64,000 bases of DNA from Rhizobium etli CFN 42 (GTDB taxonomy: Bacteria > Pseudomonadota > Alphaproteobacteria > Rhizobiales > Rhizobiaceae). The DNA is taken from positions 307,255 to 371,254 of the forward strand of contig NC_004041.2 of NCBI RefSeq assembly GCF_000092045.1, read 5' to 3'. The notes under the pieces are model-generated. The model saw only the letters and a program-made list of their open reading frames with translations. It did not search any database and was not told the origin of the DNA. Position numbers and translations under genes: made by a program. Within the stretch, counting starts at the first letter, position 1; every line of letters starts with the position of its first letter. Positions 39,304-46,131 of this stretch are shown piece by piece.

Positions 39304-39319
39304 TGTCGTGCTTGCGACA
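39304..39319 (+). promoter_or_regulatory. NifA upstream activator sequence of the peptide-export cassette
   Basis: TGT-CGTGCTTGCG-ACA fits TGT-N10-ACA exactly. It lies 94 bp upstream of the -24 element at 39413, nearly the same spacing as at nifH in this window (91 bp). Confidence 0.8.
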
Positions 39320-39412
39320 GCGTGATGTGCGGTTTGGCACGTCTCGGCGCTCTAGGGCAGCCATTGAATAACATACAGAACAGTTTTCTGATGCTTTTCG
39401 CTCCTTCTGCAT

Positions 39413-39428
39413 TGGCACGAATCTTGAA
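39413..39428 (+). promoter_or_regulatory. Sigma-54 promoter of the peptide-export cassette
   Basis: TGGCACGAATCTTGAA is TGGCACG-N4-TTGAA. The -24 part is perfect; the -12 part has the same GA variant (TTGAA) as the nifH promoter at 17266-17282. It lies 79 bp before the peptide ATG. Confidence 0.78.
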
Positions 39429-39506
39429 CCTTTTTGTTGCGCGCCGCTAGGAGCTCCCAACGGGGACCTTGGCATCTTCTCAATCCAGCTCTGAACGGAG
39501 ACACCA

Positions 39507-39632
39507 ATGATGAACAACATGGCAGCCTATCGTGTAACCGAATTAACCCCTCAAGAAGCAGCTGAAACCTCCGGAGGTTGGTATTTTTGGGTTTACTTGT
39601 TTTTGCGACGTTACGGACACTTGTTTGGTTGA
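39507..39632 (+). CDS. Double-glycine leader peptide precursor (bacteriocin/RiPP-like), 41 residues
   Basis: The frame starts MMNNMAAYRVTELTPQEAAE, continues TSGG, then WYFWVYLFLRRYGHLFG and stops. The first 24 residues look like a double-glycine leader (acidic, ELTPQEAAE, ending in GG), which a C39 peptidase would cut. The predicted mature peptide is 17 residues: 8 aromatic residues, two arginines, one histidine, no cysteine, strongly hydrophobic and cationic, plausibly membrane-active or a signal. GGAG lies 6 bp before the ATG. The HlyD gene follows after 18 bp and the C39 ABC exporter after that. Too short for normal gene calling. Antibacterial versus plant-directed role cannot be told from sequence. 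Confidence 0.8.
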   Translation: MMNNMAAYRVTELTPQEAAETSGGWYFWVYLFLRRYGHLFG

Positions 39633-39650
39633 TAAGCGAGCTGGCTCTCG

Positions 39651-40832
39651 ATGGCTCCTAGTGACTACAGACTAGCAGTTCCCCTTTCTGCTGAAACGGC
39701 CAGCTGCATCGCAGAAAGCATACTGGCGCGACGATCAGGACGATCCTTGAGCATTTATAGGGCGATCTTGCTCTTCGTCGCCGCGGCATTTGGCTCACTG
39801 CCACTCGTTACCATACCGGTCTCCATGCAGAGTGTCGGTACTATTCGCCCGATCGTGGAGAAGACGCCCCTGATAGCGCCCGTCTCCGGACGCATCTCCC
39901 GTGTCCTTGCCTTTGAGAACGATGTCGTTGCTAAGGGGAAGGAAATAATCGCCTTTGACGATCATGTAATCGAGGAAAAGCTCAGCGGGGTTTTAGCCGA
40001 CATTCATGCCAAGAGCGATCTTGCCCATGACTTCCAAACGCTGATTTCTTCCGGCGCAAGGCTCAGCGTCTCGCCCCCCCTCCAAACCGAATCCGCGACG
40101 GCTGAAAGGGTGCATTTTCTCAACTTGCTGCGCGAGAACCAAAATGCGCGCAGTAACGCCGCGGCGGAACTCGACCGCGCAAAGCGACTTGTCTCGGCTG
40201 CTGCGGCGCCGGCGAAGACCGTTGACGAGAAGGCTTTCGCTCTCCAAAATATCGAGGTCCAAGGCGAGATCCTCGTGCGACGCAAAACCGCTGATTGGAA
40301 CCAGAAGCTCCTTGATGCTAACCTGCGCTTAAAGGAACTCACGGCCACCTTGCATCAGCTCGAGCACGAACGGGACCTGCACCGCATCCGCGCCCCAGTA
40401 TCGGGTGCTCTCGAGCAGTTCTCCGGCCTCGCGCACGGAAGCTACGTGCAGAGCGGGCAAACCGTTGGTTGGATCTCGCCGAACGACGATCTGGTGGCGG
40501 AAATCTACGTCTCCCCCAACGACATTGGCTTTGTGCAGCCTGGTCAGCCGGTGCGGCTCCAAGTGGATGCCTTTAACTACAACCAATGGGGTGTCATCAA
40601 AGCAAGGGTGGTCGAGGTGGCGCAGGACTTCACTCTGCATGACGGGAACCCGGTCTTCAAGGTCCAGTGCGCGCTCTCTCGCAGCGAACTCGCGCTGAAA
40701 AGCGGGGCCATCGGCCACCTGAAGAAAGGCATGACCGTGCGGGCTCGCTTTCTGTTGGCCAATCGCACTCTCCTGCAACTGCTCTACGACGAGGCAGACG
40801 ATTGGCTCAACCCGATGCTGGCGGGGCGCTAA
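39651..40832 (+). CDS. HlyD-family membrane fusion protein (peptide exporter adaptor)
   Basis: The protein has 393 residues. A cytoplasmic N-terminus is followed by one transmembrane helix (about residues 38-60, IYRAILLFVAAAFGSLPLVT). Then come the lipoyl half-motif (TPLIAPVSGRISRVLAFEND), a long coiled coil (about 100-240) and the second half (HRIRAPVSGALEQFSGLAHG). A beta-barrel domain (GQPVRLQVDAFNYNQWGVIK) precedes the C-terminus. This links an inner-membrane ABC exporter to an outer-membrane channel, which is not encoded nearby. It is the middle gene of the peptide cassette, 27 bp before the ABC gene. Confidence 0.9.
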   Translation: MAPSDYRLAVPLSAETASCIAESILARRSGRSLSIYRAILLFVAAAFGSLPLVTIPVSMQSVGTIRPIVEKTPLIAPVSGRISRVLAFENDVVAKGKEIIAFDDHVIEEKLSGVLADIHAKSDLAHDFQTLISSGARLSVSPPLQTESATAERVHFLNLLRENQNARSNAAAELDRAKRLVSAAAAPAKTVDEKAFALQNIEVQGEILVRRKTADWNQKLLDANLRLKELTATLHQLEHERDLHRIRAPVSGALEQFSGLAHGSYVQSGQTVGWISPNDDLVAEIYVSPNDIGFVQPGQPVRLQVDAFNYNQWGVIKARVVEVAQDFTLHDGNPVFKVQCALSRSELALKSGAIGHLKKGMTVRARFLLANRTLLQLLYDEADDWLNPMLAGR

Positions 40833-40859
40833 TATTGTCCCAACAGCCAGCGAGCCTCC

Positions 40860-43007
40860 ATGTCGAGTAAGGCCATTAAGTTCAAACAGCGTGACATCAC
40901 GGATTGCGGCGCCGCCAGCCTCGCATCTGTCGCAGCCTTCTATGGCTACAAGTTGCCATTGGCGCGCATCCGCCAGTATGCGTCGACCGACCGCTCCGGT
41001 ACGAGTGTGCTGGGGCTCACGGAAGCGGCGCAGAAGCTGGGCTTCATCGCGAAAGGCGTCAAAGGTGGCTTCGACAGCCTGTACAAGATCCCCAAGCCCG
41101 CTATCGCGCACGTCGTCAAGGAGGACCTGCACCATTTCGTAGTGGTCCATGCGATCGACGCCAAGTGGGTCATCGTCATGGACCCGGCCTTGGGCGAAAT
41201 CTGCAAAGTGCCGCATCAGGAATTCATGGAGCAATGGACCGGCGTTCTGGTTTTGCTGGTTCCGGCAGACACATTCAATCGTCGAGACGAGACCACGTCG
41301 CCCCTCGCCCGATTCGCCCGCCTACTCGCGCCACACCGCACGGTGATGGCGCAGGCTCTCGTCGGCGCTCTTGTGACGACCGTCCTCAGTCTCTCGACGG
41401 CGATCTACGTTCAGAAGATCGTTGATCACGTGATCCCAGCGGGAAACCGCAACCTGCTCAACTTGATGAGCATCGCAATGCTGCTGATCCTAGCGATACA
41501 GATCCTGATCAACCTCCTAAGAGGCCGACTCGTCCTGCAGACGGGGCAGAAGATCGACGTATGCTTGATCCTCGGCTATTACAATCACATCCTGGCCCTG
41601 CCCCAGAAGTTCTTCGATAGCATGCGCATGGGAGAAATCGTGTCGCGCATGAACGACGCTGTGAAAATCAGGAGCTTCCTGAACGACGTTTCGATAAACA
41701 TGTTTGTTGACATTTTAATGATACTGTTCTCGTTCGGAATGATGTTCATCTATTCCTGGAATATTGCTTTGATCGTGGCGCTCGCCATTCCAATGTACAT
41801 CCTGGTATATTGGGCCATCAATCGGATGAATCGAAATCTCCAACGAGTCATCATGGAAAATGACGCCAAACTCGAGGCGCAACTGGTAGAATCACTCGGA
41901 GCTGTCTCCACCATTAAGACTTCCGGCGTCGAGAGCTTCGCAAACTTCAAAATGGAGACCCGCTTCGTAAAGATGCTGCATTCCGTCTACAGCTCCGGGC
42001 TGATCTCAATCTGCGGCGACAACGCCTCGACGTTGCTGTCGGTCCTGTTCACCATCGTGCTGATGTGGTTTGGAACCACGCTTGCGCTCGAACAGGCCGT
42101 CACGCCCGGCGAATTGCTGTCCTGCTATACGTTGCTTGGCTATATCACCCGGCCGGTCGCCCGCCTGATCCAGACCAACCGGATCGTTCAAGACGCGTTT
42201 ATCGCGGCGGATAGACTTTTCGAGATCTTTGAACTGGAGTCGGCAAGCAGCAGCGGCATCGATGCTACGAAGACCGATCTCGGAGATATTCGCCTGGAGA
42301 ACGTCACATTCCGCTATGGCGCGCAGGCGGAGGTTTTCAGCGATCTAAGCGTCTCCTTTCGCCAAGGAGAGTTGACGGCCGTCGTGGGTGAGAGCGGCTC
42401 GGGCAAAAGCACCCTTGCGGCTCTGCTGCAGAATGTCTACCAGCTTGAGGATGGATGCATTCGGATCGGCCAATATGCCCTCCAGGATTTCTCGAGCGCA
42501 TCACTGCACAAGGTCATGGCTGCAGTACCGCAATCGATAGACGTCTTCTCCGGTTCCGTGATCGAGAACATCGCCCTGGGCGAGTTCGAACCGGAGTTCG
42601 ATAAGATCGTACGCATCTGTGATCGAATAGGACTGCGGGAGTGCATCGAGCGCTGGCCCGGGCGGTTCCAGGCCCATCTGGGCGAGAACGGGGTTCGCCT
42701 CTCCGGAGGTGAGAAGCAGCGCCTCGCATTGGCTCGGGCCCTGTACCGGGATCCCGACGTTCTAATCCTTGACGAAGCGACCTCCTCTCTGGACTCGGCA
42801 GCCGAAGAATTTGTGCTGCGGGTTGTTGAGGATCTGTCTCGCGCTGGGAAGACCATCATAGTCATCACTCATCGGTTGAGCACCGTTCGTGGGGCGGACA
42901 ATATTGTGGTCCTGGACAAGGGGCGGGTCATTGAGGAGGGAAAGCACGCTGACCTAGTGAGAACTGATGGCCCTTACGCTCGATTATGGCGGGCGCCAAG
43001 GTCGTGA
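40860..43007 (+). CDS. C39 peptidase-containing ABC exporter (PCAT, bacteriocin-type)
   Basis: The protein has 715 residues. Residues 1-135 form a C39 peptidase: Gln10, catalytic Cys16 in ITDCGAASLAS, His91 in DLHHFVVV and Asp108 in VIVMDPALG, all present, so leader cleavage should occur. A six-helix exporter membrane domain covers about 155-430. The ATPase domain has Walker A GESGSGKST, signature LSGGEKQR, Walker B VLILDEATSSLD and the H-loop ITHRLSTV. PCATs cut double-glycine leaders and export the mature peptide. The small precursor gene and HlyD gene directly upstream complete the set. Confidence 0.95.
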   Translation: MSSKAIKFKQRDITDCGAASLASVAAFYGYKLPLARIRQYASTDRSGTSVLGLTEAAQKLGFIAKGVKGGFDSLYKIPKPAIAHVVKEDLHHFVVVHAIDAKWVIVMDPALGEICKVPHQEFMEQWTGVLVLLVPADTFNRRDETTSPLARFARLLAPHRTVMAQALVGALVTTVLSLSTAIYVQKIVDHVIPAGNRNLLNLMSIAMLLILAIQILINLLRGRLVLQTGQKIDVCLILGYYNHILALPQKFFDSMRMGEIVSRMNDAVKIRSFLNDVSINMFVDILMILFSFGMMFIYSWNIALIVALAIPMYILVYWAINRMNRNLQRVIMENDAKLEAQLVESLGAVSTIKTSGVESFANFKMETRFVKMLHSVYSSGLISICGDNASTLLSVLFTIVLMWFGTTLALEQAVTPGELLSCYTLLGYITRPVARLIQTNRIVQDAFIAADRLFEIFELESASSSGIDATKTDLGDIRLENVTFRYGAQAEVFSDLSVSFRQGELTAVVGESGSGKSTLAALLQNVYQLEDGCIRIGQYALQDFSSASLHKVMAAVPQSIDVFSGSVIENIALGEFEPEFDKIVRICDRIGLRECIERWPGRFQAHLGENGVRLSGGEKQRLALARALYRDPDVLILDEATSSLDSAAEEFVLRVVEDLSRAGKTIIVITHRLSTVRGADNIVVLDKGRVIEEGKHADLVRTDGPYARLWRAPRS

Positions 43008-43967: not shown

Positions 43968-44453
43968 TTAAACGCGCGCTACATCTGAATAGGTCTTAAT
44001 TGTTGTTAAGCCATTATCGACCAGGCCAGTTCCCGCCTCGGCGAGCTTTTGGAGGTTGTCGAAGCCAAATCGATGTACGTCGCGGAGCGTCTTCGAGAGT
44101 ACTACGAGCCGCCCCGCCGTGAGTAATATCCGACCGAATCCCTCATGGTTCACAGTCAACACCGGTGACGCCATCAGTCCGGACTGCTCCTCTATAGCAA
44201 GTGCTACGGCGGCATAGAAGATCTCAAGCCGCCACTGCACCTCTAGGTCAGGTCCCCCGATGAGAGGAATCGCCCTACGCTGCTGCCTCGTCACGATGAA
44301 ATCACAGAGCAAATCGGTGTCCGATTTCTCTTGCCACAATTCAAAGGTGTCTTGAGCACGCATCAGACGCAAGAGGCACTTAATGAAAGGCGTGGCGAGA
44401 GCATCTTTCTCATCTAATCGAGCATTGTTGGGGACAGGGGTGACGTTTGACAT
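43968..44453 (-). CDS. NifX-associated protein (DUF269), copy 2
   Basis: The protein has 161 residues, similar along its length to the copy at 12154-12642 but clearly diverged (ATPFIKCLLRLMRAQDTFEL, HEGFGRILLTAGRLVVLSKT). The frame is intact. It stands alone with only a nifH stub beyond it, no nifX, so it looks like a survivor of a second nif operon. AGGAGG is present just upstream of the start (44453). Confidence 0.85.
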   Translation of the reverse strand: MSNVTPVPNNARLDEKDALATPFIKCLLRLMRAQDTFELWQEKSDTDLLCDFIVTRQQRRAIPLIGGPDLEVQWRLEIFYAAVALAIEEQSGLMASPVLTVNHEGFGRILLTAGRLVVLSKTLRDVHRFGFDNLQKLAEAGTGLVDNGLTTIKTYSDVARV

Positions 44454-44699
44454 CAGTTAAAATCCTCCTGAGTGTTGGATGCGGTTTGACTAAGGGCCAC
44501 ACCCGCTTCCGGTAACACCATCCCTTAAAATGGTGCGGCAGATGGGACCTGTGGCGACGCAACTTGGCCCGGACGAATGACATGGCCCCTCGAAACGGGG
44601 CGGCCGCAACAACAACGGCAAGCGGCGGGCAACGCTGGCGGGCTTGACGAAAAGCGCTTCACAAGCGAGATTCCCGTCGCGATAGTCCAGTGGCGGTAG

Positions 44700-44893
44700 G
44701 TTTCGCCGCGAACTCCACCCTCAACCAACCTATTCGCCGCCAGGTGTAAAACCGTGTCTCGGGCTTTCGAATTGAGGATCAGGCGGGGGGTGGAATCAGC
44801 TTTTCGAGGTCGACAAGGACAGTGAGAGTATCTTGAGAGGCCGTGTACTTGCCGATACCCCCTTTTCCGTGCGAACTGATGCAGACCTGCCAT
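44700..44893 (-). pseudogene. NifH 5' relic
   Basis: On the minus strand the start MAGLHQFARKRGYRQVHGL is a frameshifted echo of the NifH start and P-loop. It is followed in frame by [17 protein letters not shown], which matches the NifH stretch [17 protein letters not shown] in this window. Similarity then ends. No promoter resembling the functional nifH one was found upstream. It marks a deleted second nif copy together with the DUF269 gene at 43968. Confidence 0.75.
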
Positions 44894-46131
44894 GTATTTT
44901 CCCTTCAAGGTTCAAATCGACTTCGACCGGACGCCACACGTTCCACCAGGCGATTGCCCGCCGCGTAGTTCTGGGAGTTCAAGACTCATGCCAGTCTCCT
45001 CCGCTGAGGTTCGGAACACGGCATCTGTATTGTTTCCAGCTTCTTAGCTAGCCCATGAAGAATTGATCGAGGACAACGTTGTCGTGAACCGGACAAGACG
45101 CGGTGGGGATCGAAGAAATGGCATCCCGGTGCAGCGGCGGAAGCCTATTCTCCGGCCACGTCAGCAACAAATGACACCCGCCGAAGCCGCTCCGCTCTCA
45201 ATTCGCGGATTGGGCGCAATGTCCGGCCGCTTGCCGAGGTGCAGCCGGTCGATCTTCTTTGCTTGGCGATCACAGCGCCTCCCAGTGATGGACTCCGAGA
45301 CCCGCATGCATCACTGGCTGGAGCTCCCTTCCTCGACAGTTAGCGCCGTCATTTGGGGGAATGCCGCGGGCAAATGGAATGCGGCATAGGCCCCCGCGAC
45401 GCCGGCGACAGCTCAACAACGCTCTGAATTTCCACAGTGAACGGCTGTTAGACGTAGCCGGCAAAGGGGAAGCTCACGAAGATCAGATGGCCCTTCAGGG
45501 CCGGGTCCTGGTCCGATGCCCACCGGATCGACCGGCCGCAAGGTTTTAGGACCGTTTCAACAACCAGCCCCTGGGCGCCTCGCCGGCGTGTATCTTAAGT
45601 TGCCGGCGTGCGTCGGCCGCGTTCACTCTCTATCCGCACCAGAACACGGCACCCGGGGGATCATGCTGCCGGCACGACCTAGCTGGCCGGTACCGTCGGC
45701 GCCGGCAAGAGGATGACTGTGGCAGCGGCCGTCATGGAGCAGTGCTGCCTCGGTGTGACCGCTGAGGCGATACTCGCTGTTTCCGGTCATTGCTTAGCAC
45801 AGGCCGGAAAAGCGTTTCTGGTACCTTAGCGAACGCTCGCGATTTTAGCAGGGACAACGGGACCTGGCGGCAAGCGGACCCCAAACAAGTGCGAAGCAAA
45901 CCGAATCTTTGGCAACCTCAAAGAGGGTGGAGTCGATACCCTGGGGGTCAAGCGCCCGCGTCGTCGCGGAGCATTGGGCGCGAGGGGTTTGCGGATTCTC
46001 GATACGTGATTGGCACATCAGTCGGACCTCAGCCGATCTTCGTGCAAAAGGATCCTTTAAAAATGGGCCCCTTAACGCGTGCCTTGGCATGCTTGCTTGC
46101 TGACGAAGTTTAGGTTGAGAATTGAACACCG
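44894..46131. other. No intact gene identified
   Basis: About 1.2 kb of frames shorter than 110 residues with many stops. Some pieces look formerly coding (for example near 45063-45390 and 45790-46113), but I cannot assign a family. Confidence 0.45.

What the first reader, a model, noticed from the sequence alone, without database searches (positions are those of the whole stretch)
39304..43007. Peptide secretion cassette under apparent NifA/sigma-54 control
Seen: TGT-N10-ACA at 39304, a -24/-12 promoter at 39413, then a 41-codon double-glycine-leader peptide gene, a HlyD-type adaptor and a C39-peptidase ABC exporter with all catalytic residues. Known: C39 exporters cut GG leaders and export bacteriocin-like peptides. 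Inference: the peptide is made and secreted when nitrogenase is expressed, that is inside the nodule. A peptide delivered there could act on the host or on rival bacteroids. UAS-to-promoter spacing (94 bp) and the TTGAA -12 variant both resemble the nifH promoter in this window.
Basis: partly seen in the sequence, partly recalled or inferred. Interest (0 to 1): 0.95.

Follow-up and report, generated by a model that had tools for sequence, protein, structure and literature searches.

The report
Nodule-stage secreted peptide cassette of rhizobia
A symbiotic plasmid of Rhizobium that also carries nitrogenase genes holds a three-gene cassette, found in five genera of legume symbionts, that is predicted to switch on together with nitrogenase and to cut and secrete a small, fast-changing peptide that would act inside the root nodule.

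Summary
A 41-codon double-glycine-leader peptide gene, an HlyD-type adaptor and a C39 ABC exporter lie behind a NifA-type UAS and a perfect -24/-12 site. Homologous cassettes occur in Rhizobium, Sinorhizobium, Mesorhizobium, Bradyrhizobium and Microvirga, with a conserved 24-residue leader and a variable core. Of 55 distinct peptide genes, 39 have a -24/-12 site within 160 bp (0.4% per gene in shuffles), 29 of these also a UAS; of the 14 genes outside an exporter operon, 10 have the site. Exporter and leader genes occur in the same 13 of 100 related genomes; all 13 have nifE, and none of the 71 genomes without nifE has either (16 nifE genomes lack both). No conserved immunity or modification gene was found. 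Best reading: a NifA/sigma-54-controlled peptide-secretion system of nitrogen-fixing symbionts. Regulation, cleavage and export are inferred from sequence; the target is open. A 2021 paper reports that what is almost certainly this operon helps R. etli coexist with yeast; the parts I read name neither peptide nor promoter. New variant of a known kind; interest 0.8.

The parts
39304..39319 (+). NifA-type upstream activating sequence TGT-N10-ACA
   Evidence: the same element in 27 of 38 dereplicated homologous promoters
39413..39427 (+). -24/-12 sigma-54 promoter TGGCACGAATCTTGA, 94 bp before the peptide start codon
39507..39578 (+). conserved 24-residue double-glycine leader of the peptide gene
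39579..39632 (+). variable 17-residue core WYFWVYLFLRRYGHLFG and stop codon
39651..40832 (+). HlyD-type adaptor (the start may instead be at 39747)
40860..43007 (+). C39-peptidase ABC exporter (peptidase domain residues 9-136)

Best explanation
The cassette encodes a small double-glycine-leader peptide with a C39 ABC exporter and an HlyD adaptor, and it is likely transcribed by NifA and sigma-54 alongside nitrogenase, so that the exporter would cut off the leader and secrete the core from nitrogen-fixing bacteria. Shown from sequence: the genes, the UAS and -24/-12 site, the conserved peptidase residues, the shared leader and promoter across five genera, and the co-occurrence of leader genes and exporter in the same 13 of 100 relatives. 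Inferred: NifA activates the operon at low oxygen; the exporter cuts after GG; an outer-membrane channel supplied in trans (not searched for) completes the route; the core reaches the symbiosome space. Leader genes elsewhere in some genomes, mostly with the same promoter, would feed the same exporter. The confidence below is for regulation plus peptide export. For the end target, which the data do not settle, I commit to a host-facing role in the symbiosome (about 0.5) over killing rival rhizobia (about 0.3) and signalling to siblings (about 0.15).
For: Leader genes near the exporter at 22 of 23 representative rhizobial loci. 39 of 55 distinct peptide genes with a -24/-12 site of at most one mismatch within 160 bp, 29 of them perfect, against 0.4% per gene in shuffles; 29 of the 39 with a UAS, gaps mostly 74-93 bp. 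In 38 dereplicated promoters information averages 1.39 bits per motif position and 0.29 in the flanks. Exporter and leader genes in the same 13 of 100 relatives; nifE over cut-off in all 13, and in 29 of the 100. nifE in 36 of 36 rhizobial carriers and 0 of 7 non-rhizobial exporter relatives tested. nifA on the same contig, C1. Leader pN/pS 0.27. Closest solved relatives are peptide exporters, PCAT 4ry2 and ComA.
Against: No expression or peptide data here. 16 of 29 nifE-positive relatives lack the cassette, and 65 of 69 nifE-positive genomes of the order lack leader genes, so it is not needed for fixation. nifH passed its cut-off in only 8 of 13 carriers, which I put down to multi-copy nifH in draft assemblies. 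16 of 55 peptide genes have no promoter within 160 bp (several are second genes of an operon) and locus L082 shows none. An IS481-type element lies between UAS and promoter in L047 and L058. The window's own core is short and lacks the hydrophobic stretch of most cores.
Confidence: 0.8

Rival explanations
1. It is a class II microcin or bacteriocin system: the core kills competing rhizobia in mixed nodules, infection threads or low-oxygen biofilms, and producers resist by some unlinked means.
For: Exporter and adaptor of the kind used for microcins; 30 of 51 cores net positive and 37 of 51 with a hydrophobic 15-residue stretch; fast-changing cores; one Sinorhizobium peptide is auto-annotated as a class IIb bacteriocin.
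Against: No third gene is conserved beside the cassette at 23 loci, so no adjacent immunity gene was seen, though one under 40 residues or fast-evolving would be missed. Nif-coupled expression would peak where neighbours are mostly clonal (inference).
Confidence: 0.3
2. It is a peptide pheromone system in which bacteroids signal their nitrogen-fixing state to siblings.
For: Double-glycine peptides with C39 exporters serve as pheromones in Gram-positive bacteria (ComA; function recalled).
Against: No conserved sensor or regulator gene beside the cassette; cores too varied for one receptor.
Confidence: 0.15
3. The operon is a detoxification pump, as the authors of PMC8479133 suggest for a yeast sophoroside.
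For: Operon RHE_PD00332-00333 partly restored mixed biofilm with yeast to a strain cured of two plasmids.
Against: Peptidase residues are invariant and a leader peptide gene travels with the exporter; neither is needed for small-molecule efflux. The passages read do not consider the peptide.
Confidence: 0.05
4. In the bean lineage the peptide is a shortened, decaying relic and the cassette no longer works.
For: Core of 17 residues against a median of 29; 8 core differences in 51 bases between window and L038; IS elements upstream in L047 and L058; exporter match ends at residue 630 in strain C104, whose annotated gene stops next to an IS21 gene. A shortened core beside a longer one is seen in L043 and L065.
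Against: Promoter, leader, adaptor and exporter are intact in the window, and 37 plasmid records hold at least 80% of the region.
Confidence: 0.08

Closest known systems
Peptidase-containing ABC transporters (PCAT, PDB 4ry2; ComA, PDB 8hf4; TIGR01193)
   Same: Full-length match to 4ry2 (E 4e-145) with the peptidase residues aligned; over the TIGR01193 cut-off.
   Different: Gram-negative setting with an HlyD adaptor; a shared leader family; a NifA-type promoter.
Class II microcin export (CvaA/CvaB type; recalled)
   Same: GG-leader peptide, HlyD-type adaptor and C39 exporter.
   Different: No adjacent immunity gene found; nif-type promoter; antibacterial activity unknown.
RaxX/RaxABC of Xanthomonas (PMC4216712, abstract and passages; RaxX itself recalled)
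   Same: C39 exporter predicted to release a leader-bearing peptide towards a plant.
   Different: Rax has a sulfotransferase in the operon; none is conserved here.
R. etli operon RHE_PD00332-00333 (PMC8479133; abstract, passages, sections 7 and 9)
   Same: Almost certainly this adaptor and exporter: the only C1 match covering the whole exporter.
   Different: Studied for coexistence with yeast; the parts read mention no leader peptide and no NifA promoter.
NifA-RpoN regulons of R. etli and M. loti (PMC3538637, passages; Salazar 2010 not held)
   Same: UAS and -24/-12 promoter of the nifH kind.
   Different: The M. loti passages show no such exporter; I could not check whether Salazar 2010 lists this operon.

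Membership tests
C39 peptidase-containing ABC transporter (TIGR01193) | N-terminal C39 peptidase, membrane and ATPase domains in one protein, over the family cut-off | tested here: met
   (524.6 against 523.85 bits, a narrow pass)
C39 peptidase-containing ABC transporter (TIGR01193) | Cys, His, Asp and oxyanion Gln of the peptidase | tested here: met
   Q10, C16, H92, D108 invariant in 10 of 10 and aligned to 4ry2
C39 peptidase-containing ABC transporter (TIGR01193) | Cleavage of a double-glycine leader | not testable with these tools
   leader present; no assay
NifA/sigma-54-dependent operon | -24/-12 promoter with TGT-N10-ACA upstream | tested here: met
NifA/sigma-54-dependent operon | nifA in the genome | tested here: met
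   C1:243145-244812, over cut-off
NifA/sigma-54-dependent operon | NifA- and RpoN-dependent transcript | not testable with these tools
   Salazar 2010 not held
Class II microcin | GG-leader peptide with HlyD adaptor and C39 exporter | tested here: met
Class II microcin | Immunity gene beside the peptide gene | tested here: not met
   no further conserved ORF of 40 aa or more at 23 loci; a shorter or diverged one would be missed
Class II microcin | Antibacterial activity | not testable with these tools
   needs an assay
Class II microcin | TolC-type outer-membrane channel | not tested
   not searched for
Enzyme-modified peptide (RiPP) system | Conserved modifying enzyme in the cluster | tested here: not met
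   none conserved at 23 loci

The most novel reading that the evidence does not exclude
Nitrogen-fixing rhizobia of several families own a NifA-wired secretome of hypervariable peptides, one kind of exporter serving up to nine leader-sharing peptide genes in a genome, released by bacteroids into the symbiosome to act on the legume cell: a bacterial counterpart to the plant's own nodule peptides and a hidden layer of host compatibility.
Probability: 0.4. Interest if true: 0.95.

Novelty: new variant of a known kind. Interest (0 to 1): 0.8.

Why it matters
Some legumes send peptides to their bacteroids; a conserved, nitrogenase-coupled route for peptides going the other way would be a new channel in the symbiosis. 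Because leader, promoter and exporter are shared and the cores are not, the system makes direct predictions: one exporter deletion should silence all peptides of a strain, core exchange between laboratory strains tests specificity, and promoter reporters show when it fires. If the peptides prove antibacterial instead, they would bear on nodule occupancy, a practical problem for inoculants.

Tried and rejected
nifH as marker of nitrogen fixation: only 8 of 13 carriers passed the cut-off; three others show only fragments, and nifH is multi-copy here. Replaced by nifE (13 of 13).

Protein searches: the peptide P0001 found 2 proteins and a Mesorhizobium peptide 10 at E up to 10, because cores differ; the leader profile reached the family instead.

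Script errors: the promoter scan returned zero because of an index error of mine; corrected. One search stopped on a script error; rerun.

Rejected readings: TGT-N10-ACA alone as evidence; a multidrug pump (peptidase residues and co-inherited peptide); a modified RiPP (no conserved enzyme).

Limits: the leader profile and alignment A2 were built from leaders first found beside these exporters, so their recovery at those loci is partly circular; the absences and the genes found elsewhere are not. Searches use a loose first look that can miss weak leaders. The 39 pairs are not independent and were limited to cores at least 50% identical, which lowers the core ratio; dN above dS in a few close core pairs is suggestive only. 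Genomes are related, so counts are not independent events. One of 56 peptide genes was dropped for having under 100 bp upstream. One search labelled 19 genes 'elsewhere'; holding them against contig lengths I found that five of these (four in L161, one in L174) lie in exporter cassettes, so I report 14, of which 13 are on another contig or more than 20 kb away and one is on the opposite strand near the exporter of L046. This mended count did not change my odds.

Literature: ten searches, several showing only the top rows of long lists, brought up no paper that, in the listings and passages I saw, describes a NifA-controlled GG-peptide exporter in rhizobia. Salazar 2010 and two older open papers on the RpoN regulon and on plasmid p42d, asked for by DOIs from memory, were not held. 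Dirix 2004 and Michiels 2001, seen only as references, may include relatives. Supplementary tables could not be read.
Full report
What the window is. It is G000:C1:307255-371254, the end of a 371,254-base contig of a 6.53 Mb Rhizobium genome in seven contigs. I recall these sizes as R. etli CFN42 and its symbiotic plasmid p42d; no call names it. nifH (three copies) and nifE lie on the same contig. The cassette region matches 67 plasmid records, 37 over at least 80% of the query; the best place is 99% or more identical in 35 records, and 35 of the 40 rows listed name Phaseolus vulgaris as source.

The observation. The UAS ends 93 bp before the -24 box; the nifH pair has 90. Only three such pairs exist in the window, against a mean of 0.02 in 150 shuffles.

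The family. I fetched nine plasmid relatives of the exporter and scanned the genome collection (226 relatives, best 80 kept). Of these 80 loci 38 are rhizobial: 37 at 73-100% identity and Bradyrhizobium aeschynomenes at 60%. The other 42, Deltaproteobacteria and Bacteroidota, lie at 52-57%. The window, the nine plasmids and the 37 loci make 47, or 23 representatives below 97% exporter DNA identity. Leader genes lie near the exporter in 22 of 23. The exception is L073, where a -24/-12 site stands directly before the adaptor and leader genes lie on another contig of the same genome. B. aeschynomenes has one too. The 42 non-rhizobial loci gave two marginal hits of about 8 bits; one of them, L084, has GG peptides with a different leader.

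Leader and core. The 22 leaders align without gaps. Cores run from 4 to more than 40 residues, from membrane-like to Cys/Pro-rich; the few very long ones may be read-through of a frame. Of 51 cores of 12-60 residues, 37 have a hydrophobic 15-residue stretch, 30 are net positive and 7 have two or more Cys; the window's own core is not in the hydrophobic class. Over 39 non-independent pairs the pooled pN/pS is 0.27 in the leader and 0.59 in the core. Between the window and L038 the 51-base core has 8 differences, 7 of them non-synonymous (my count of the printed sequences; six lie within nine bases and may be one event), the 72-base leader 1, the adaptor 21 in 1179 and the exporter 16 in 2145.

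The promoter. Of 55 distinct peptide genes with at least 100 bp upstream, 39 have a -24/-12 site within 160 bp of the start codon (29 perfect), and 29 of these have a UAS in the 180 bp before it, mostly at 74-93 bp (outliers 30, 53, 54); shuffled upstream regions give 0.4% per gene. Split by place, corrected against contigs: 29 of 41 genes in line with an exporter, and 10 of 14 outside an exporter operon, have the site; 21 and 8 have the UAS as well. Of the 23 loci scored, 19 have a site. Of the other four, L039's first gene was counted under its duplicate in L174, L041 and L061 have the site farther upstream, and L082 has none. In 38 dereplicated sites the information sits in the motif (1.39 bits per position, flanks 0.29), and 27 of 38 have a UAS.

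Distribution. The exporter at 87% identity or more is in 13 of 100 relatives, the next best match being 31%. Leader genes are in the same 13. nifE is over its cut-off in 29 of 100, including all 13; 16 nifE genomes lack the cassette, and none of the 71 others has it. Of 397 genomes of the order, 4 have leader genes and all 4 are among the 69 with nifE. All 36 rhizobial genomes have nifE; 0 of 7 non-rhizobial ones tested do. Leader genes were found in 26 of 26 rhizobial genomes searched, at best E of 3e-11 or lower, and in none of 6 non-rhizobial ones below E 0.5. Numbers per genome reach nine in B. neotropicale.

What is missing. Clustering ORFs of 40 residues or more at the 23 loci shows the exporter, the adaptor, the peptide and their shadow frames, and nothing else shared widely: no immunity protein, modifying enzyme or regulator.

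Prior work. PMC8479133 (abstract, passages, sections 7 and 9) shows that R. etli operon RHE_PD00332-00333 partly restores coexistence with yeast to a strain cured of two plasmids, and that the nifH promoter is active in such co-culture. It is almost certainly this operon. The authors propose detoxification; peptide secretion fits the gene content better. Of the other papers I saw listings or passages, and of PMC6421345 also one section.

Judgement. That this is a peptide-secretion cassette under NifA/sigma-54 control is very likely. It works like a C39 exporter system and meets each feature of that family tested here. I do not file it as a microcin, because the immunity gene was looked for and not found. 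What the peptide does is open; missing immunity, fast cores and confinement to nif-bearing symbionts tilt me to a host-facing role.

Noticed in passing
window 43968-45095 (minus strand): A third UAS/-24/-12 pair (promoter 44993, gap 86) precedes what looks like a nifH fragment and an ORF that a near-identical plasmid annotates as NifX-associated.
   Followed up: partly
window 10922 (minus), 20960, 49588: Further -24/-12-like sites without a UAS at 60-130 bp; the last lies upstream of the place of the phasin gene of the near-identical plasmid.
   Followed up: no
L047, L058, L192: A 1041-base IS481-type element sits between UAS and promoter in L047 and, in the other orientation at the same place, in L058; an IS481 transposase gene also lies just upstream of the peptide gene in strain C104.
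   Followed up: partly
L079, L080, L081: Bradyrhizobium barranii subsp. apii 1S5 carries three cassettes, one on the chromosome and two on one plasmid.
   Followed up: no
L085: Bradyrhizobium aeschynomenes has a cassette with only 60% exporter identity, a family leader and a -24/-12-like site.
   Followed up: partly
L191: In Rhizobium sp. Pop5 the adaptor is not annotated between peptide and exporter; the gene table is incomplete, so a broken gene is only a guess.
   Followed up: no
L083-L126: Exporters at 52-57% identity in Bacteroidota and Deltaproteobacteria; L084 has two GG peptides with another leader.
   Followed up: no
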